Below, piece after piece: positions 1-9,070 of a DNA stretch of 20,760 bases. The position numbers and the translations under genes were made by a program. Numbering within the stretch: the first letter of the stretch is position 1; each line of letters begins with the position of its first letter. Source of the stretch: a virus; the IMG/VR virus record IMGVR_UViG_3300032294_000077, positions 1 through 20,760 of that record; one strand, given 5' to 3'. The notes under the pieces are model-generated. The model was not told the origin of the DNA and ran no database searches. It saw nothing but the letters and a program-made list of their open reading frames with translations.

Positions 1-246
1 ATATCCGACGGTACCGTGGTTGCAGCGCATAGTAATCAGCTTAGAGATGGTAAGGGTAGAGGAATTAAATGCAGTGATGCCCTTATTGCGGCCCTGTGTT
101 ATCGGTGCCATGCGGAAGTCGATCAGTCAAGCACACTTACGAAAGTCGCAAGGATCGAGATGTGGGAAGAAGCCCATAGATCCACAATTAGACAACTTTT
201 TGAACAGGGATATCTTACTGTAAATAGATATCCAAAACTAACATAA
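1..246 (+). CDS. HNH/DUF1364-like phage nuclease, C-terminal part (5' truncated by window edge)
   Basis: The reading frame is open from the first base (I-S-D-G-T before the GTG at 16), so the gene starts upstream of the window and the GTG is not its real start. The visible part has the pattern AHSNQ, then GKGRGIK-C-SD, then LCYRCHAEVD, then a helix with W-EEAH-TI. This matches small phage HNH-type nucleases of the DUF1364 / RecA-dependent-nuclease kind, which sit in replication-recombination regions and have a Cys/His zinc site. The AxHxN part gives the first strand of the beta-beta-alpha metal fold and C-x2-CH-x3-D the second. Any upstream CxxC knuckle would be outside the window. The stop at 244-246 is 5 bases before the next gene, suggesting co-transcription. 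The role in DNA processing is inferred from family resemblance only. Confidence 0.6.
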   Translation: MSDGTVVAAHSNQLRDGKGRGIKCSDALIAALCYRCHAEVDQSSTLTKVARIEMWEEAHRSTIRQLFEQGYLTVNRYPKLT

Positions 247-251
247 ATATT

Positions 252-1082
252 ATGAATGATCCTTTTAAAATTATTGAACAAACAGCTATAAGTTTTAGTG
301 GAGGGCGTACGTCTGCTTATCTTTTGTGGAGGGTTTTACAAGCTCACAATGGAAAACTTCCAGAAGAAGCAAAGGTTTTATTTGCAAATACTGGTAAAGA
401 AGATGAAAAAACACTTGAGTTTGTAAAACAATGTTCTGAAAAATGGAATGTAGAAATAACATGGGTTGAATACATTGCCGAAGAACCATGGTTTAGAGTT
501 GTAAATTTTGATACAGCTAGTAGAAACGGTGAACCATTTGAAGCAGCAATTAGAAAATATAAAAAATTACCTAATCCTGCTCAAAGATGGTGTACTGGTA
601 TATTAAAAATTAGAACAATGAGCAAGTATTTAAAAAGCCTTGGATGGAAACATCACGAAACAGAAAATTCTGATTTTGTAGGAATTAGATATGATGAACA
701 AAGAAGGGCTGCAAAAATGCCAAGGGAAAAAACCCCATTGGTTGCTGCTAAAGTAACCAAGCAAATTGTTTGGGATTTTTGGAAAAACAATGATTTTGAT
801 TTAGAGTTGCCAATAGTTGATGGTGAAACAGTAGGCGGTAACTGTGATTTATGTTTTTTAAAATCTTTGCCAAAAATTGTTACTTTGGTTAATCAAAATC
901 CTAAAAGAGCTGTTTGGTGGGCAAATATGGAATCTTTGGTTCCTAATTTAGAGGGAGTTAAACCTGGCAATGGGAACACATTTAGATCGGATAGACCGTC
1001 CTATCAGCAAATAGCTAACAATCAAATCAATCAATTAAAATTATTTGATGAGGAAACGATACCTTGCTTTTGTGGGGATTAA
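252..1082 (+). CDS. PAPS-reductase / PP-loop ATP-pyrophosphatase family protein
   Basis: A 276-aa protein with the PP-loop nucleotide-binding motif SGGRTS at residues 16-21, FANTGKED at 44-51, WCTGILKI at 113-120 and GIRYDEQRR at 144-152. All are typical of phosphoadenosine-phosphosulfate reductase-like proteins, many of which are phage-encoded. Five cysteines stand out: C114, C198 and C201 (C-x2-C), and C272 and C274 (C-x-C at the C-terminus). They could bind an Fe-S cluster or zinc, which is inference. The family adenylates or reduces sulfur compounds, and related enzymes act in sulfate assimilation, tRNA thiolation and DNA phosphorothioation; the substrate here is unknown. No clear Shine-Dalgarno precedes ATG 252, which follows the upstream stop by 5 bases, so coupling is likely. 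The gene is strikingly AT-rich: two 60-base lines counted by hand gave 28% and 32% GC, against about 53% in the late genes. This suggests separate acquisition. Confidence 0.85.
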   Translation: MNDPFKIIEQTAISFSGGRTSAYLLWRVLQAHNGKLPEEAKVLFANTGKEDEKTLEFVKQCSEKWNVEITWVEYIAEEPWFRVVNFDTASRNGEPFEAAIRKYKKLPNPAQRWCTGILKIRTMSKYLKSLGWKHHETENSDFVGIRYDEQRRAAKMPREKTPLVAAKVTKQIVWDFWKNNDFDLELPIVDGETVGGNCDLCFLKSLPKIVTLVNQNPKRAVWWANMESLVPNLEGVKPGNGNTFRSDRPSYQQIANNQINQLKLFDEETIPCFCGD

Positions 1083-1173: not shown

Positions 1174-1857
1174 CTAGATCCGAATATTGTAGGAATGATG
1201 CAAAATTAAATCCTTGACTTTTTTAGGTAGACGGGTGTAGTCATTATCAAAGTCTGTAGGCATCTTAGTCCATACTTCTGGTAGTGTAAAAGGCGCCCTG
1301 CCAGGCTGGTACCATCTACGGGTATATTGCATTGCAAGGTAAAAATAGACATAAGCATTAGCCTTTTGGACATACTCTTTTAAATTGATTGGTAGATAAA
1401 ACTGGTCAATCTTTTTAGCTGCCCGGCGCTCACAATCCAGCTCTAGGCTCATTGCACCTCTTAGGACTTCCCGTAGCTTACGCTCTCCCAGATCTCGTTC
1501 ACCATCCAGCCATTCATGCATCAATGTCAACGGGTCATGCTCCTCCCCATTAATATTGATAGTGGCATTCCAAATCTTGATCTGTTCAGTATATTGATCT
1601 CGGTGGCAGGTTTCATGCACCATAATAGGAATCCAGTCTGGGGATAGCCCAGCCACGAATAGGCGGTCTGTATGGCTACAAAAGAATCCAGATACCCTTA
1701 CCCTATCCATGAGGACTTGGCGCTTTCTGAGGATGTTTACGCGGATGTCATGGGCATTGCTAGCCATTACCTCAAACTCTACCCATGCCCGTACATCAGG
1801 AGGCAGAACCTTTAGGTCTACCTCAATGCGATTCTTTACTTCGTCCAGCTGACCCAT
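1174..1857 (-). CDS. Predicted zincin-type metallopeptidase (HExxH protein), last gene of the late operon
   Basis: A 227-aa protein. Residues 79-85 read M-V-H-E-T-C-H, a zinc-peptidase HExxH motif (H81, E82, H85) placed in a predicted helix. About 55 residues later comes ELDCERRA (E139, E143), the kind of Glu-bearing helix that supplies the third zinc ligand in gluzincin-type peptidases. Between them lies MHEWLDGERD (113-122). The rest is mixed alpha/beta with no signal peptide or membrane segment. The start at 1857 overlaps the end of the phosphoesterase gene by 22 bases and has only a weak purine-rich site (GGCGGACAGA) before it. As the last gene before a convergent junction it is probably expressed late. 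Its target could be a virion precursor or a host protein, but nothing here decides. The motif is clearly visible; peptidase activity is inference. Confidence 0.75.
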   Translation of the reverse strand: MGQLDEVKNRIEVDLKVLPPDVRAWVEFEVMASNAHDIRVNILRKRQVLMDRVRVSGFFCSHTDRLFVAGLSPDWIPIMVHETCHRDQYTEQIKIWNATININGEEHDPLTLMHEWLDGERDLGERKLREVLRGAMSLELDCERRAAKKIDQFYLPINLKEYVQKANAYVYFYLAMQYTRRWYQPGRAPFTLPEVWTKMPTDFDNDYTRLPKKVKDLILHHSYNIRI

Positions 1858-3071
1858 TCTGTCCGCCCAACTACACGCTTACGCTCAACGTTAACTGGTG
1901 CGCTGAATGTAATCCCATGCTGTGGATGGGTAATCCATAGGGCTTGCCTAGGCGGTTCATACGGGAAATTGTTCTGATTCGCATATTCATCGTAACCCTT
2001 GAGAGACCCATTGACTATGAGGCGCTGGAGCTGGATTAGCTGGTGCCAATGCCCCAAGAGCATTGTATCGTAGTCTTGGTCTATCTGAGCGTTCCTAGAG
2101 CGTTTACGGTGGTCTCCACGGATAATCGGGCCTAGGGCTCCAATCATGCCGTCACCGCCCCTAAACTGGTCTCCGTGAGTTAGTAGATACTTATGTCCAA
2201 AAATAGAATAGTAGGCATCTGGGCCATCAGGAATTAGGAACTTGATCCTATCATCGGCTTCAAATCGCTTTGCTAGGAAGCTGTATAGTAACCAGTCAAA
2301 GGATGTAAAATTGCGTCCCTTAGCCCGTATTTTGTGGGTATTACGACCATGATTGCCGGTAACACAGGGCACGAATACCTTGCCGAACTGATCTGCTAAG
2401 GTGGTTATGCACCAAGTTAGGACGCCAAATAGGTCTAAGACTGTAGGCATGATCTCCACTTCATTGGTAGCCATTAGCTCTTCATGGATATCTCCTGACA
2501 CCATGTCACCGCCTAGAGCGAAAACAATACCAGGATACTCAGGATTCTTTAGGTGATTATTTAGTAGGTCTATAGCCGTCTCAATGAGTGCTCTAGCCCG
2601 TTGCTGGGAAATGGTAATGTTGTACTGATTAACCCCGCCAATCTGCTTAGGATCTACGATCTCTGCCCAATGCCAATCGGATGCGAACAGGGTTGGAACA
2701 CCAGAGACGTCCTCTTTAGGCGTTCGTATTAACCAGTCTGGGACATCAACATTCTCGTCCTTGAGCTGAATAATTTTCTTTTTAATGAATTCTGCGGTTA
2801 ACTGCTCTTTGGCTTGAGCATCTGCTGCGGTCTCTAAGGTTCTGATCTTGGCTTTAGCTTCTTGCAACTCTGCCATAAAATCAACGCCATCTTGTATCTT
2901 GAGCTCTGGTACTGTGGGCTTAATACCTTTACCAGCTGCTACACGATATCGACCGTCATATGTTCTAGGGTTTAACCCTAATAACTTTGCTGCTTCGGTT
3001 TTACTGCCCGCCGTATGAAAGGCGTCTACTGCTTCTTGTAACTGCTTCTGCGACAACTTTGGCTGTGGCAT
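1836..3071 (-). CDS. Calcineurin-like metallophosphoesterase with N-terminal helix-turn-helix
   Basis: A 411-aa protein with three parts. Residues about 7-45 form a Fis-like helix-turn-helix (KTEAAKLLGLNPRTYDGR). Residues about 66-105 are a charged helix, likely coiled coil. From about 125 to the end is a metallophosphoesterase domain with the full metal-ligand set: D132-W-H134, G188-D189, G239-N240-H241, T298-H299-G300-D301 and G340-H341-W-H343. The family hydrolyses phosphodiesters or phosphomonoesters with a two-metal centre and includes SbcD/Mre11-like nucleases. The added HTH suggests it acts on or near DNA. ATG 3071 is preceded by a strong AGGAGA site that overlaps the TAG stop of the giant upstream gene, so translation is probably coupled. 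Its place at the end of the virion operon is unusual for a repair enzyme; genome processing or packaging is possible but unproven. Confidence 0.85.
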   Translation of the reverse strand: MPQPKLSQKQLQEAVDAFHTAGSKTEAAKLLGLNPRTYDGRYRVAAGKGIKPTVPELKIQDGVDFMAELQEAKAKIRTLETAADAQAKEQLTAEFIKKKIIQLKDENVDVPDWLIRTPKEDVSGVPTLFASDWHWAEIVDPKQIGGVNQYNITISQQRARALIETAIDLLNNHLKNPEYPGIVFALGGDMVSGDIHEELMATNEVEIMPTVLDLFGVLTWCITTLADQFGKVFVPCVTGNHGRNTHKIRAKGRNFTSFDWLLYSFLAKRFEADDRIKFLIPDGPDAYYSIFGHKYLLTHGDQFRGGDGMIGALGPIIRGDHRKRSRNAQIDQDYDTMLLGHWHQLIQLQRLIVNGSLKGYDEYANQNNFPYEPPRQALWITHPQHGITFSAPVNVERKRVVGRTEWVSWTK

Positions 3072-3075
3072 GATC

Positions 3076-3081
3076 TCTCCT
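3076..3081 (-). promoter_or_regulatory. Strong Shine-Dalgarno site for the phosphoesterase gene, overlapping the upstream stop codon
   Basis: On the minus strand the sequence reads TAGGAGAGATC then ATG. AGGAGA lies 4 bases before the start at 3071, and the TAG (3082-3080) that ends the 1996-aa gene shares bases with it. This supports the chosen start and suggests termination-reinitiation coupling. Confidence 0.75.
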
Positions 3082-6000
3082 ATTGTTTCAGTGACTTCCT
3101 CATTCCTTCTACGTTTTCCGTCATTTTGGACATTAGAATTCTTAAGCGATTCATCTCTGCCCGTTTGTATTCCGTATCAATATCCTTGCTTTGTTCAATT
3201 AAACGCATTTGTTTACGAATTTCAGCAAGTTGTTTTGACGTCTTATCATACAACTTTGCAAGCGCAATGTCATCCCCTTGATCTCTAAGGATTTTCCCTA
3301 CCTTTTCGGAATCTCCTAATTCGGCGTAATGGCGCATGTCTGCCAAGGCGGATTGAACGCGGGCATTTGTCTCATAAAACTCTGTCATAAACTTAGAGGC
3401 GGTCTCTGGCTCTGTCTTAATAAAGCCCATAGCTACCGTGTCAATCACGGGCTTGCGTACCCGTGTGCCTTCTGTAAAGGGCTCTACGGCTAGGTCTGCT
3501 GTAGCTACGGCTGTAGATCCTGCCCAGCCTAGATAAGCCTTGATAGCGTAGTCAATCTGTACTGGAGACATACCTTGAGCGTCTGGATTAAATGTCAGTA
3601 CTTTGTGCATGCCAGCAGATATGCCTCCTAAAGCCTGAGCAATGCCACTAGTATTGTTAGTAATCCGTTCTTGGGCGGATAGACGTTCCATGCCAGCAGA
3701 CACAATTGGAGCCCCTGTAAAGCTGTCCTTATTGGAATACAGGTCAATCATTGGCTTAACCATCTGTGGGATTGGGTTAAGTGCAAATGTATCCATAAGG
3801 ATATGGTTAAGGCGGTTAAAGAATACTTTGCCTTCTACCTTGTCATCGCTAATCTGTTCCAAGGTACGCTCTGCCATCGTGCCAAGGGCGCCAATCTCAA
3901 ATGGCTTAGGAATGCGGAACTTAGTATCACCAACCTTAAACCACCAGAAGTTATCACGATCCCAATCTTCCCGCTTCTTAAACTCTTCGTCGTCCTTATA
4001 CATGCCATATAGAGCCATAGACGCCAGCATAACTGCGCCGGAGATTGTCATAAAGCGTTGTGCCTTTTGCTTATCGGATGCGGTAACTTCCTTGCCAGTT
4101 GTCGTGTTGTAGATCAGGCGGTATGTAGGGGTGATACCATCACGTCCGAGCTTATAGAGACCCTGTAAGCGAGCGTTAAAGAATGGCACAACAGAGCTAA
4201 GAACTTTGACTGCGCGGAACTGCCCTTGCATGGAGAAGTCCATTAAATCTCTAGCCTGGAAAGAAGCCTCAAGGTGGGTCTTGCCTTCCTTCATTAACTT
4301 ATCGTATAGGGCTAGACGGTTAGCGTTCTCAAATCGATTGCCTTGGGTGTTATACCAATCCAATGCAGACTGTAGTACGCCTTTTACTTTCTCAGGGCTA
4401 TCTAGGATAGTGCCGTAGTCAACGCCCTTATCTATGAGACGTTTGATTAACTTAGCTTGATTGCCTTCGTGTGCCACGCCCATCTCAAAGATACCGCCAG
4501 ATGCTAATGCAGACATATAGGTTGGATTACCTTTGTCTGACATTTTCAATCCGTTGTAAACGTTCTGGTACAGATTCTTAGACAATGGCGACACAGCTGC
4601 TGAGGAAATGGAATCACGGATTAAGTTGCGTAGCTTATAGGCTGGAGACAATGTGACACCATAGCGCAGGGCGTTAGTGAAATGCTTGGCAACATCCAAG
4701 AACATGGACTTAGGCCCAAGATAACTGATCGTAGAAATAGCATCCACTAGACCTACATCCTCAATCTCAATACGAACTGGCTGACCATCCCTCATAACCT
4801 TAACGGTATTTGGAGGATATTTACCATTAACTGGTTTAGCGATCTTGGCAACGCCCATGTCTTCGGCGGCTTCTAAAGTCTTATTGGCGGCTTGGTTTTT
4901 CATGGCAGCAGAAAGGATATGCGACCAATTCATTAGGACGTTTTCCATCAAGTCGTTGACTTTTTTCTCTCCGCCTTTTAATGACTTACTAAACTCTTGC
5001 CCAGTCAACTTAGACGATGCACTGATGGACTGCACATCACCGTCTTCCATTGCCTTATAGAAAGGAATGTAATAGATATCGCTAGCAAAACGGTCATAGC
5101 CAGCTTTATCAATAATGCCAGCATCTAAAGCAACCTTTAATACGGAACGGTTAAGCGCCTGTTCTTCTTTCAACGCCTTCTCATAAATGTCTTTACGGGA
5201 TTTGCCGTTTAGCTGACCTTTGGATAACTGATCTCTACCAGCTAATAACTCTGGGTCAAAAGACCGCTTATCTGCTGGCAGGTTGGCATCACGATTTAAT
5301 GCCTTCCACATCTGGTATTGGTCTACCTCAGTGCCCAATGGCTCTAGGATCTTGAGAAGACCTTTGGTGCCTGGGCGAATGTTAAGAGCACCGCCATCGT
5401 TAAATACCTCACCATGCTCCAATAGACCCTGCAATCCACCGTCAATAGACTTAGACATACGAGCCATCATGTAGGCTTCATCGCTGTATTTCTTAATGGT
5501 ACGGAACTCATCAAATACGCCGATAACCATACGCTCAAAGAAGTTTTCTTTTAGGTTCTCAAAGCGCTGTTTAACAGTAGCTTTCTCTGCGGTAAACTGT
5601 TTGAGCAGTTTGTCTGCGTAGGCTGGATCTACACCAGTTAACGGGGCTCGTACTTTTGCACGGGATGGAACTTCAAATAATTCTTTTTGTTCTTTTTTAG
5701 CAGGTATTTCCCCACGCTTTACTTTAGTTTCAGATAAAGGAATTCCATCAAAGTTAGCTGCCGTAGGCAAATCGTCCAGAGGTTGTGGCATATTTTCTGG
5801 AGTATAGTATTCAACATTCCCTCTTACAAATACATCAGTGTCAGACATGGTAAGTTCGTCTGCATATTTAACAGGTCTGCCGTCATCAACACGAACAAAT
5901 AAATGCTCTCGAGCTGGATTAAATGTAATTCTAGTTCCCTCTAGATCTCTAACGCCTTGGACAATTTCTCCTTGTGCGCCACCCATAGGCAACTTACTTT

Positions 6001-9000
6001 CTCCCTTGAAAATATCTGCTCTAGCTTTTTGATTAATAATAAAATTAACATTACGGATGGTTACAACTCCGTCATATCCAATGGCATTTTTAACACTAAT
6101 AGAAAATGATCCATCTCGTTTTTGGGAGAATGGTTCATGGATAGTTGTGAGATGCATTTTCTGATCTCCACGCTTAACCACACCATTCAAATTAAGTCTA
6201 ACCATAACATTGGTGCCATCTGGTAATTCCCGATTAGCAAACAGTTTGTTAGCAATTTGATCTGACCAAGACGTGTTTGTTATCTCTTGATCTGTAAGTG
6301 GGTCTTTAGGTGGTTTAATTTCATACAGCTCTTCCCATTGACGTAAAGTACCTTGACCGTCTAATCCGCCAGTCTCAGCTTTTTGAAATACATCATCTAC
6401 CGTTCTGAATCCACGACCAGCAAAGTAGTTACGGATCATATCCATTAGGTCAATGATCTTGTCAAAGATAGTCTTAATGTTTGCTGGCTGAGTTCTGTAA
6501 TCCGCAAAGGCGTCGGCAATAGCTTCTTCAATACGGACTTCCATTGACTCGCTACCATAACGGCTACCATCTGGATCGTATTTCTTAATCCATTGGTTCT
6601 TTGCTTTATTAGATAAAATCTTCCACTCAGCATCAGAAAATAATCCAATATCTCTCATTGCATGAAGAGCTTCGTGATTTAATGTGCGCTTAACATTTGT
6701 GCTGGCTAAAGATACTTTAATTAAATTTTCAAAATAAGATCCTGTAACTTCTGTTAATTCACCATTGATATAACGTGACATATAGTCTTCAAATTGAAGA
6801 CCTACATTTTTTAGTCCCATCTTATCTAAGGCATCACGCATCTCTATTGCTAAATCCAAACCCTCTTGAATAAATTTATCTGACGGCAATGGCTTTTCAT
6901 AACGAGTAGACGCTTCTGCAATACGAGCTGCTTCTGCTTCTTGCTCTTCTGGAGTTAGCTCGCCAACAACTGCTGGAGACTCTTGCTCCAAAGTTGATTT
7001 ACGGCGCTCAATCTCATCTTCCAGTTCTCGGAGCTGTTGATTGACTGTCTCATAATCGGAATATAGATCTGCTGATCTAGGTGTTACTACTGGCTCATTG
7101 TCGTAAGCGGCTTTTAATTTCTCAGAAAATGCTTCTCTACCGTCTGGATCGTCTGGGTTATAAAACTCATCTGCGGATAGGAAGCCAGCATCAAATGCCA
7201 TCTCAGCTGCCATGTCTAATTCAAGACCCTCGCCTGGTTTCTTAGCAAAGAATCCTTTGCTGACCTTGGGTGATAGAGCTTTGAATTGATCGTCTTTGGT
7301 ACGTTTGCGTGGTGCAATGGTATCAGAGAATACTTCTTGCTTGAGCTGGTGTTTAGGATCCCGTAACCACTGCTTGAACTCAAGTGCGGATTTGTTAAAT
7401 TTAATCTTAGCCTCTTCTACCTTGCCACTTAGAGCCCGCGCTTCGTCTGCCATTGAATCGGTCTCAAAACGATAGATATCCTTTTCAGTAGGATCAATCA
7501 CAACATTTGGATTGTTTGGATTAAAGGTGAGCTTTTTGCCGTTCTCTATGACATTGACCGCAGTGCCAGTCTTATTCATAGTGCCTTCGTAGACCTTAAT
7601 GCCTTCAGGGGTCTTACGCATAACTGTGCGGGTATTGGTAAACTGTTTTGCCTTTTCTTCTTCAATGGCAATTTCTTCTGCTGTTGGTGGACGATATAAG
7701 CCAGCAACTGGTTCTGCTGTACTAAATGCCGACTGTGCGGCTTTCATCTCATCAATCTTGGCTATCTGCGCCTGCTCTCTAGCCTTGCGATCTTCCACCA
7801 ATTTATCCAAGGCTTGCATGGTTGGCGAGTATTTACGGGCTCGATCATATGCGGCTTTCTCGGCGGCAATACGATCTTCTTCGCTAGCATATGACTCAGT
7901 AACTGTGCGTTGCTGTGGCATACCTTGTTGCTGTTTAATTTTATTGATTTCATCAAGCTGCTCAAGGGACTGCGCAACATCTCCAGATGGAGAGACAAAC
8001 AATACAGTTGGCTCTTCTTTCTCTTCCGTTTGAATTTCAACTTGCTGTAATTCGTTTGTATCTATGGCTTTTTGTTGTGCCTCAGCAAGCCTGCGTCCTG
8101 CTTCTGCTTTATTTGATACCCGTCCAATAATACCGATTGGGCCTAGCAGGGATGTTGCAAACGCTACCTCACCGTATTCTCTGAGGGCGTCATCAGTAAG
8201 CACTGGCAAATCTGCTTGTGCCCGCTCTAGCATAGTCTGCACAACCTCAGTAGGAACTTCAGCCGCAACACCAACAGCAGTACCTTTAAGGACTGTGGAT
8301 AGTAGCGACTCTTTAAATAGCTTCTCTCTGCCCTCTGCACTAGATTGCATCAACATCTGACCAACCTTTGGGCCAAATACTGAAGACGCTAGCCTACCAC
8401 CCAATGGAATAAATGTGGCGGCTACATCTAATGCTGCTTGAGGAACTGCGGTGGCAGCGGCTGTGCCACGCTCAATCTGTAAGGGTTTACCCGTAGCTGC
8501 TTGTGCCTCTGCTTGGCGTTGAATGTTACCGCCATACTGTTGAATCAATGATGGGGCTACTGCACCAGCTAAACCACCTATTACTGTACCAACACCAGGC
8601 ACAACGGATCCAGCGGCGGCACCAGCTCCAGCGCCCGCTAATGTTGTTGCAATGCCAGGCACTTGCTCTGCAATAGCACTAGGAATTTGACCTGCTAATT
8701 CTTTACCAGCAGCTAAGAGACCTTGTTGACGATATGTTTCTAGTAATCGCTCTAAACTCGCACCTTCTCCCAATCGAGCTTGGATGTCTGCTTGGCGTTC
8801 ACGACCACGAATAGCGGCTTCTTCACCGCCTTTGGTGATGGATTCTAGGGCTGTTTGACCTGTAGATACTAGCTGTTCTGCACCACGGCGTAGTGCTGTA
8901 CCGATGCCTTCTTCTTTCTTTTTAGGGCTTAAAAAGTCTAAAATCTCTTGATCTGAGTATCCCTCACTGCGAGCACCTGCAACGTCAAACTTTTTTTGAC

Positions 9001-9070
9001 CGCCAAGATAATCAACAATCTCTGGTAACGAGTAGCCCTCTTTCAGAGCACCCTGTATATCAAATGCCAT
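3080..9070 (-). CDS. Giant polyvalent internal virion / DNA-ejection protein with HExxH peptidase motif (gp16-like position)
   Basis: 1996 aa, the largest gene here. The N-terminus carries two tandem copies of a motif, FDIQGALKEGYS (3-14) and FDVAGARSEGYS (28-39), each continuing to E-I-x-D-[YF]-L. Ala/Gly-rich hydrophobic stretches at about 133-173 and 212-232 could insert in a membrane. Residues 799-803 read H-E-A-L-H, followed by E848-E849-A-I-A-D, a plausible zinc-peptidase site. About 950-1090 resembles a beta-rich module known from large polyvalent phage proteins. The region around 1470-1800, including RIPKPFEIGALG near 1718 and a hydrophobic segment near 1670-1690, resembles the large polyvalent protein associated domain 38. 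A charged helical tail ends the protein. The start at 9070 has TAGGAACTGTTT before it. Position and size suggest the role of T7 gp16, injected into the envelope during DNA entry; this is inference. Confidence 0.8.
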   Translation of the reverse strand: MAFDIQGALKEGYSLPEIVDYLGGQKKFDVAGARSEGYSDQEILDFLSPKKKEEGIGTALRRGAEQLVSTGQTALESITKGGEEAAIRGRERQADIQARLGEGASLERLLETYRQQGLLAAGKELAGQIPSAIAEQVPGIATTLAGAGAGAAAGSVVPGVGTVIGGLAGAVAPSLIQQYGGNIQRQAEAQAATGKPLQIERGTAAATAVPQAALDVAATFIPLGGRLASSVFGPKVGQMLMQSSAEGREKLFKESLLSTVLKGTAVGVAAEVPTEVVQTMLERAQADLPVLTDDALREYGEVAFATSLLGPIGIIGRVSNKAEAGRRLAEAQQKAIDTNELQQVEIQTEEKEEPTVLFVSPSGDVAQSLEQLDEINKIKQQQGMPQQRTVTESYASEEDRIAAEKAAYDRARKYSPTMQALDKLVEDRKAREQAQIAKIDEMKAAQSAFSTAEPVAGLYRPPTAEEIAIEEEKAKQFTNTRTVMRKTPEGIKVYEGTMNKTGTAVNVIENGKKLTFNPNNPNVVIDPTEKDIYRFETDSMADEARALSGKVEEAKIKFNKSALEFKQWLRDPKHQLKQEVFSDTIAPRKRTKDDQFKALSPKVSKGFFAKKPGEGLELDMAAEMAFDAGFLSADEFYNPDDPDGREAFSEKLKAAYDNEPVVTPRSADLYSDYETVNQQLRELEDEIERRKSTLEQESPAVVGELTPEEQEAEAARIAEASTRYEKPLPSDKFIQEGLDLAIEMRDALDKMGLKNVGLQFEDYMSRYINGELTEVTGSYFENLIKVSLASTNVKRTLNHEALHAMRDIGLFSDAEWKILSNKAKNQWIKKYDPDGSRYGSESMEVRIEEAIADAFADYRTQPANIKTIFDKIIDLMDMIRNYFAGRGFRTVDDVFQKAETGGLDGQGTLRQWEELYEIKPPKDPLTDQEITNTSWSDQIANKLFANRELPDGTNVMVRLNLNGVVKRGDQKMHLTTIHEPFSQKRDGSFSISVKNAIGYDGVVTIRNVNFIINQKARADIFKGESKLPMGGAQGEIVQGVRDLEGTRITFNPAREHLFVRVDDGRPVKYADELTMSDTDVFVRGNVEYYTPENMPQPLDDLPTAANFDGIPLSETKVKRGEIPAKKEQKELFEVPSRAKVRAPLTGVDPAYADKLLKQFTAEKATVKQRFENLKENFFERMVIGVFDEFRTIKKYSDEAYMMARMSKSIDGGLQGLLEHGEVFNDGGALNIRPGTKGLLKILEPLGTEVDQYQMWKALNRDANLPADKRSFDPELLAGRDQLSKGQLNGKSRKDIYEKALKEEQALNRSVLKVALDAGIIDKAGYDRFASDIYYIPFYKAMEDGDVQSISASSKLTGQEFSKSLKGGEKKVNDLMENVLMNWSHILSAAMKNQAANKTLEAAEDMGVAKIAKPVNGKYPPNTVKVMRDGQPVRIEIEDVGLVDAISTISYLGPKSMFLDVAKHFTNALRYGVTLSPAYKLRNLIRDSISSAAVSPLSKNLYQNVYNGLKMSDKGNPTYMSALASGGIFEMGVAHEGNQAKLIKRLIDKGVDYGTILDSPEKVKGVLQSALDWYNTQGNRFENANRLALYDKLMKEGKTHLEASFQARDLMDFSMQGQFRAVKVLSSVVPFFNARLQGLYKLGRDGITPTYRLIYNTTTGKEVTASDKQKAQRFMTISGAVMLASMALYGMYKDDEEFKKREDWDRDNFWWFKVGDTKFRIPKPFEIGALGTMAERTLEQISDDKVEGKVFFNRLNHILMDTFALNPIPQMVKPMIDLYSNKDSFTGAPIVSAGMERLSAQERITNNTSGIAQALGGISAGMHKVLTFNPDAQGMSPVQIDYAIKAYLGWAGSTAVATADLAVEPFTEGTRVRKPVIDTVAMGFIKTEPETASKFMTEFYETNARVQSALADMRHYAELGDSEKVGKILRDQGDDIALAKLYDKTSKQLAEIRKQMRLIEQSKDIDTEYKRAEMNRLRILMSKMTENVEGMRKSLKQ

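What the first reader, a model, noticed from the sequence alone, without database searches (positions are those of the whole stretch)
1174..1857. HExxH zincin motif in the small terminal gene of the late operon
The sequence shows H81-E-T-C-H85 in a helix, then an ELDCERRA helix with E139/E143 at a distance that fits a third zinc ligand. A small stand-alone peptidase of 227 aa at the end of a virion operon is not a standard part of T7-like or P22-like gene sets. It could mature virion proteins (for example the giant internal protein) or act on a host factor.
Basis: partly seen in the sequence, partly recalled or inferred. Interest (0 to 1): 0.55.

Follow-up and report, generated by a model that had tools for sequence, protein, structure and literature searches.

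The report
Small phage-borne zincin-fold metalloenzyme
A small phage gene at the end of a late gene block encodes what looks like a zinc-dependent protein-cutting enzyme of a family found almost only in viruses of bacteria; its target is unknown, and it is probably not the dedicated processor of the neighbouring giant phage protein.

Summary
ORF 1174-1857(-) encodes 227 aa with H81-E-T-C-H85 and E139/E143 in ELDCERRA. Hundreds of IMG/VR relatives exist. In a 55-sequence alignment down to about 20% identity, G57, H81, E82, H85, Q88, E139 and E143 never vary; E139 and E143 are also invariant in the 30 rows not selected on the Glu motif. The model (pLDDT 94) has the zincin order: N-helix, sheet, HExxH helix, Glu helix. 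The best structural matches are IrrE/PprI, SPRTN, lethal factor and similar enzymes, but only at Z 5.9-7.0, and Foldseek gives nothing significant. No curated family claims the protein; DUF6782 comes nearest, below its cut-off. It is a real, nearly virus-restricted zincin-fold family.

The gene often sits near late or packaging genes. In 8 of 44 family clusters it adjoins a calcineurin-type phosphoesterase, against about 2 expected. Most likely it is a cytoplasmic metallopeptidase cutting a specific phage or host protein during infection. Substrate and activity are untested; an iron hydroxylase is not excluded.

The parts
1174..1857 (-). Gene of the 227-aa zincin-fold protein (the finding)
   Evidence: ORF and translation; relatives; purifying selection
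1603..1617 (-). Codons of HExxH (H81-E-T-C-H85): proposed metal ligands H81, H85 and general base E82
   Evidence: invariant in 55 of 55 rows
1420..1443 (-). Codons of E139-A146 (ELDCERRA), Glu helix: E139 proposed third ligand, E143 proposed second-shell residue
   Evidence: E139 and E143 invariant in 55 of 55 rows, and in 30 of 30 rows not selected on this motif; helix 125-152
1836..3071 (-). Upstream gene, HTH plus calcineurin-type phosphoesterase (PHROG 284, 'exonuclease'), overlapping the finding by 22 nt; recurrent neighbour of the family
3080..9070 (-).
   Evidence: comparison with PMC5512222 (passages)

Best explanation
The gene encodes a soluble, stand-alone zincin-fold metalloenzyme, most likely a zinc peptidase of gluzincin type. 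H81 and H85 (HExxH helix) and E139 (next long helix) would hold the metal, E82 would activate water, and E143, one helix turn after E139, would support the site from the second shell. The strand with G57 and F59 before the HExxH helix would be the substrate-binding edge. It probably works in the cytoplasm during infection, expressed late, and cuts one or a few specific proteins (a host factor or a phage packaging-stage protein) rather than serving as the dedicated processor of the giant internal protein. Shown: gene, motif, conservation, predicted fold, neighbourhoods. Inferred: metal, which Glu is the ligand, peptidase activity, timing, substrate.
For: Invariant H81, E82, H85, Q88, E139, E143 in 55 of 55 rows; E139 and E143 in 30 of 30 rows not selected on the Glu motif; HExxH..Q in 23 of 23 rows found through other motifs and in 48 of 48 loci. 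H85-E139 spacing varies (41-53 residues) while both ends stay fixed. Models with pLDDT 94.3 and 95.5 give N-helix, sheet, HExxH helix, insert, Glu helix, the zincin core described in PMC5512222. VIA: the top 21 rows and the top 20 are, by title or by recalled knowledge (the M. tuberculosis regulator rows), HExxH-type metalloenzymes; IrrE 3dte is first in both (Z 5.9 and 7.0, rmsd 3.4, 100 residues). Twelve M78/IrrE proteins share the register E..A...A (invariant E118, near-invariant A121, invariant A125), matching E139, C/A/N142, A/S146. Profile comparison with M78 scores 41 over 113 columns, against 34 over 34 columns for SprT and at most 17 for shuffles. No hydrophobic stretch (0 of 55 with KD19 above 1.6) suggests a soluble protein.
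Against: Foldseek finds no PDB or viral match at E <= 0.001, and all VIA Z values are under 8, a level the tool warns may be only a common arrangement. M78 against SprT scores 34 on the motif alone, so 41 is only modestly above that baseline, and hhalign did not align the Glu helices. Non-peptidase metalloenzymes (YfcM, the ChlB HExxH oxygenase domain) also appear in the VIA lists. No relative was found that has been tested biochemically. The neighbourhood near late genes could still mean a virion or packaging substrate.
Confidence: 0.6

Rival explanations
1. It is a late head or packaging maturation protease: it cuts a virion or packaging protein, including possibly the giant internal protein, before or during DNA packaging.
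For: Last gene of a late block. 26 of 104 loci (some re-fetched) have an HNH gene directly downstream, and 11 of 104 then have a terminase large subunit. In XacN1 and RAS14 it lies a few genes after the portal vertex gene, and in XacN1 after the annotated prohead core protease. In 12 of 104 loci it follows a MoxR-type AAA+ gene that usually accompanies a vWA gene (10 of 104), a pair proposed to act in virion assembly (PMC7824862 passage).
Against: No single virion partner recurs across the family. The giant protein has its own HExxH and is detectable in 2 of 28 records. Other clades have non-virion neighbours, such as IMPDH-like, PhoH-like and Hsp70-like genes identified by eye. The XacN1 paper passages read do not mention this ORF among virion proteins, but I did not see the figure or supplements.
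Confidence: 0.25
2. It is a zincin-fold Fe(II) oxygenase or hydroxylase (as YfcM/EpmC or the alpha-ketoglutarate HExxH enzymes), modifying a protein rather than cutting it.
For: YfcM (4pdn, 3wtr; Z about 5) and the ChlB HExxH domain (8s5f) appear among the VIA matches. YfcM binds metal through His59, His63 and Glu98 with an acidic second-shell residue (PMC4231759 passages), much like H81/H85/E139/E143.
Against: IrrE, PprI and SPRTN peptidases rank above them. No family library names an oxygenase.
Confidence: 0.12
3. It is an ImmA/IrrE-like regulator that inactivates a repressor.
For: IrrE and PprI are the best structural matches; the upstream gene starts with a weak helix-turn-helix match.
Against: No M78 profile match at E <= 0.05 in any of 55 members. 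The upstream helix-turn-helix is Fis-type, below cut-off and fused to a phosphoesterase, not an XRE repressor.
Confidence: 0.08

Closest known systems
IrrE/PprI/ImmA (peptidase family M78, COG2856, PF06114)
   Same: Best structural match in both models (3dte Z 5.9 and 7.0); HExxH followed by E..A...A; soluble intracellular proteins
   Different: No M78 profile match; longer H85-Glu insert (41-53 residues); extra conserved Q88, E143, R145, W182 and a long C-terminal helix pair; nearly confined to viruses, whereas M78 was found in 34 of 60 bacterial genomes
DUF6782 (PF20573, putative metallopeptidase family)
   Same: Most frequent sub-threshold Pfam match: 36 of 50 members at E <= 0.1, 33 of 55 at E <= 0.05, around the HExxH motif
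   Different: Window protein 11.7 bits, best relative shown with a score 24.6, cut-off 27; only about 50 residues around the motif match
SprT/SPRTN/Wss1 (DNA-protein crosslink proteases)
   Same: HExxH fold relative; SPRTN 6mdx Z 4.5 and 6.0; jumbo phages were reported to carry SprT-like stand-alone zincins thought to cut host proteins (PMC7824862)
   Different: SprT uses a His as third ligand (recalled); here an invariant Glu; SprT-like profile below cut-off (best score shown 20.5 against 25.6)
MPTase domains of phage polyvalent proteins
   Same: Zincin core with HExxH helix, variable insert, Glu helix (PMC5512222); the neighbouring giant protein is of this type
   Different: Those are domains of giant multidomain proteins; this family is stand-alone, 190-247 aa in 55 of 55 members
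YfcM/EpmC and HExxH oxygenases
   Same: Zincin-like fold, two His and one Glu at the metal
   Different: Not peptidases; lower-ranked matches; no evidence here of iron chemistry

Membership tests
Zincin-like fold (HExxH + Glu) | HExxH on a helix, both His and the Glu invariant | tested here: met
   55 of 55 rows; helix 75-90
Zincin-like fold (HExxH + Glu) | Glu on the following core helix | tested here: met
   E139 and E143 invariant, including 30 of 30 rows not selected on that motif; helix 125-152. Geometry not measured
Zincin-like fold (HExxH + Glu) | Core: N-helix, three-stranded sheet, two C-terminal helices | tested here: met
   Secondary-structure order of models against the description in PMC5512222
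Zinc metallopeptidase | Zinc binding and peptide-bond hydrolysis | not testable with these tools
   Needs purified protein
M78 / IrrE (PF06114) | Match to the family profile | tested here: not met
   No PF06114 match at E <= 0.05 in 55 members nor at E <= 1 for the window protein
M78 / IrrE (PF06114) | Same peptidase-domain fold | tested here: inconclusive
   Best match in both models but Z 5.9 and 7.0; hhalign probability 73
M78 / IrrE (PF06114) | Paired XRE-type repressor gene | not tested
   Not searched systematically
DUF6782 (PF20573) | Score at or above the curated cut-off (27 bits) | tested here: not met
   11.7 bits; best relative shown with a score 24.6
SprT-like (PF10263) | Profile match above cut-off | tested here: not met
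   5 of 55 members at E <= 0.05; 20.5 against 25.6 bits for L136; no match listed for the window protein
YfcM / HExxH hydroxylases | Fe(II)-dependent hydroxylation | not testable with these tools
   Structural resemblance only
Dedicated processor of the giant internal protein | Occurs together with that protein | tested here: not met
   2 of 28 records; records may be fragments

The most novel reading that the evidence does not exclude
The family and the calcineurin-type phosphoesterases that repeatedly sit next to it (three different PHROG families) form a protease-nuclease pair that strips and trims proteins bound to DNA ends, a phage analogue of SPRTN plus Mre11-type repair, acting on replicated or packaging-ready phage DNA or on host DNA-bound proteins.
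Probability: 0.1. Interest if true: 0.75.

Novelty: new variant of a known kind. Interest (0 to 1): 0.42.

Why it matters
It defines a compact zincin family (signature HExxHxxQ, 41-53 residues, then ExDxExR) that the curated libraries searched here miss, with hundreds of members in environmental phages including jumbo phages, and almost none in the bacterial genomes searched. Stand-alone phage proteases that act during infection are rarely characterised; a small, confidently modelled, apparently soluble one with a recurrent phosphoesterase neighbour is easy to test.

Tried and rejected
Sequence searches of the PDB with the protein and with three alignments gave nothing significant. Foldseek against PDB and BFVD gave nothing at E <= 0.001. 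PHROGs: best E 0.35 for the window protein; phrog_10499 in 7 of 50 members. NCBIfam: 1 member each for 7 unrelated families. DUF6782 members for a profile comparison could not be gathered: 3 of 299 genomes, all below cut-off. No Rfam match in the window. The stretch between the convergent genes folds about as well as its shuffles (z -1.0) and has no terminator-like site.

Considered and rejected: a chance motif (conservation); a pseudogene (dN well below dS); giant-protein processing as its dedicated job. E143 rather than E139 as the ligand is less likely, because the M78 register matches E139, but it is not excluded. One search used an ELDCE pattern, so conservation of the Glu motif in those loci is partly by construction; this is why rows were split. 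In that split, 30 rows were free of Glu-motif selection, 23 of the other 25 were tabulated for HExxH, and L100 and L102 were left out of that second sub-table. All loci also had to pass tblastn against the query. Of 432 relatives only the best 80 were kept and seen.

Phosphoesterase adjacency used profiles built from phosphoesterases in these same loci; L030/L031 and L091/L095 look like related phages; no p-value was computed. The 104 loci include re-fetched copies of the same contigs (for example L076 and L145).

Full report
What is there. The ORF at 1174-1857 on the minus strand starts with ATG and encodes 227 aa. HExxH is H81-E82-T83-C84-H85, and ELDCERRA holds E139, D141, E143 and R145. 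The gene overlaps the stop of the upstream phosphoesterase gene by 22 nt and is the last of an unbroken minus-strand block that runs to at least 20747. The window is a 20,760-base virus record. Most close relatives start at the position of window residue 8; the window and L001 carry a seven-residue extension, whose first five residues have low confidence in the model.

Relatives. tblastn finds 4 of 50,697 phage records: an uncultured 642-kb phage, Xanthomonas phage XacN1, and Stenotrophomonas phages CM1 and RAS14. IMG/VR holds many more: 29 of 30 candidate stretches, 77 of 91 and 432 of 494 (best 80 kept). In GTDB contigs, 1 of 15 candidate stretches was a relative (a Rickettsiaceae MAG contig). 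A profile search of 398 genomes of that MAG's phylum found that same genome plus two weak partial matches. By contrast M78 was found in 34 of 60 genomes of that phylum. The family is thus nearly virus-restricted in what was searched.

Conservation. In A5 (55 rows, table) G57, H81, E82, H85, Q88, E139 and E143 are invariant; D141 is kept in 53, R145 in 54, W182 in 54 and Y162 in 53. Because some loci were found through an ELDCE pattern, I separated the rows: in the 30 found without it, E139 and E143 are 30 of 30, while D141 becomes N or E once each and C142 becomes N (11), A (1) or K (1). In 23 rows found through the Glu or another motif, HExxH..Q is 23 of 23. RAS14 reads EVDAEKR and the Rickettsiaceae contig EHECELM, still with both Glu. 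The spacing between H85 and E139 ranges from 41 to 53. Window against L001 gives dN 0.058 and dS 0.85.

Fold. AlphaFold2 with 50 rows gave pLDDT 94.3 and pTM 0.89 for the window protein. With L122 as the target and 56 rows it gave 95.5 and 0.90. Both show an N-terminal helix, a small sheet, the HExxH helix, an insert, a long helix with the two Glu, and a further long helix. This is the zincin core as described in PMC5512222 (passages read). Foldseek alone finds no significant match. The VIA second look ranks IrrE first in both cases (Z 5.9 and 7.0, rmsd 3.4, 100 residues), with PprI, SPRTN, Mycobacterium regulators, lethal factor, PPEP and BlaR1 among the next rows and HExxH oxygenase and YfcM rows between them. 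Z under 8 is weak by itself; the weight comes from the top rows being HExxH-type enzymes (the Mycobacterium rows by recall) and from the independent sequence evidence.

Which Glu. In 12 M78 proteins the downstream acid that never varies is the E of E..A...A (A121 near-invariant, A125 invariant), which matches E139-C142-A146 here; this makes E139 the likelier ligand and E143, one turn later, a second-shell residue. YfcM shows similar logic: Glu98 binds metal and Asp105 supports a His (PMC4231759 passages). This assignment is an inference.

Family placement. No library searched claims it. DUF6782 comes nearest: 11.7 bits for the window protein and 24.6 for the best relative shown with a score, against a cut-off of 27. 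SprT-like reaches 20.5 against 25.6 for L136. Profile-profile comparison with M78 scores 41 over 113 columns, with SprT 34 over 34 columns; M78 with SprT scores 34; 40 shuffles reached at most 17. M78/IrrE is the nearest relative, but the margin over a motif-only match is modest.

Neighbourhood. In 104 loci (some re-fetched) an HNH gene lies directly downstream in 26, a terminase large subunit three or four genes on in 11, and a MoxR-type AAA+ gene upstream in 12, with a vWA gene in 10. XacN1 and RAS14 have it between the portal region and a phosphoesterase. Calcineurin-type phosphoesterases of PHROGs 284, 221 and 547 are neighbours in different clades. At 60% identity the loci, window included, form 44 clusters; 14 have a phosphoesterase in the fetched flank and 8 have it adjacent in the representative, against 2.06 expected if placed at random within each locus. 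PHROG 284 itself was found in 2 of 28 longer records, so the partner is not fixed.

The 1996-aa protein has LPD38 and HEALH at residue 799, so it looks like a phage polyvalent protein. PMC5512222 describes these as often carrying their own zincin domain, with self-processing as the likely role (passages). Relatives of it were found in 2 of 28 records with the small gene, one of them a partial 37% match. A dedicated maturation role is therefore unlikely, though other late or packaging substrates are possible.

Prior print. Searches for DUF6782, for phage metallopeptidase terms and for SprT-like in phage genomes did not show this family described as such; only titles and abstract openings of the listings were seen, except the papers named here. 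The nearest statement is PMC7824862 (passages): stand-alone SprT-like zincins in some jumbo phages, proposed to cut host proteins, and a MoxR-vWA pair. Whether any of those accessions belong to this family I could not check.

Verdict. A real, apparently uncurated zincin-fold family in phages; enzyme class likely, substrate unknown. Moderate interest.

Noticed in passing
window 3080-9070 (-), HExxH codons 6662-6676: The giant late protein has its own zincin-type motif (HEALH ... EEAIADAFADY) plus LPD38, typical of phage polyvalent proteins; a relative of the same region occurs on the contig of L022.
   Followed up: partly
L119-L148 clade, for example L147 3525-4817 and L148 1054-3348: In 12 of 104 loci a MoxR/CobS-type AAA+ gene precedes the small zincin, usually with a vWA gene that itself contains a HEGSH stretch; a recurrent three-gene arrangement in large phages.
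   Followed up: partly
window 1836-3071 (-); L012 4028-4996; L080 2769-3887; L030 4542-5105: Three PHROG families of calcineurin-type phosphoesterase occupy the slot next to the zincin gene in different phages, as if the partner had been swapped.
   Followed up: partly
L108 971-1564: The only relative in GTDB contigs is on a 5.4-kb contig of a Rickettsiaceae MAG; it may be a virus fragment binned with the bacterium or a true transfer.
   Followed up: no
window 252-1082 (+) and 1-246 (+): A PAPS-reductase-like PP-loop protein (PHROG 424) and an HNH endonuclease sit convergent to the late block; close relatives of the zincin elsewhere also have an HNH gene next to it.
   Followed up: no
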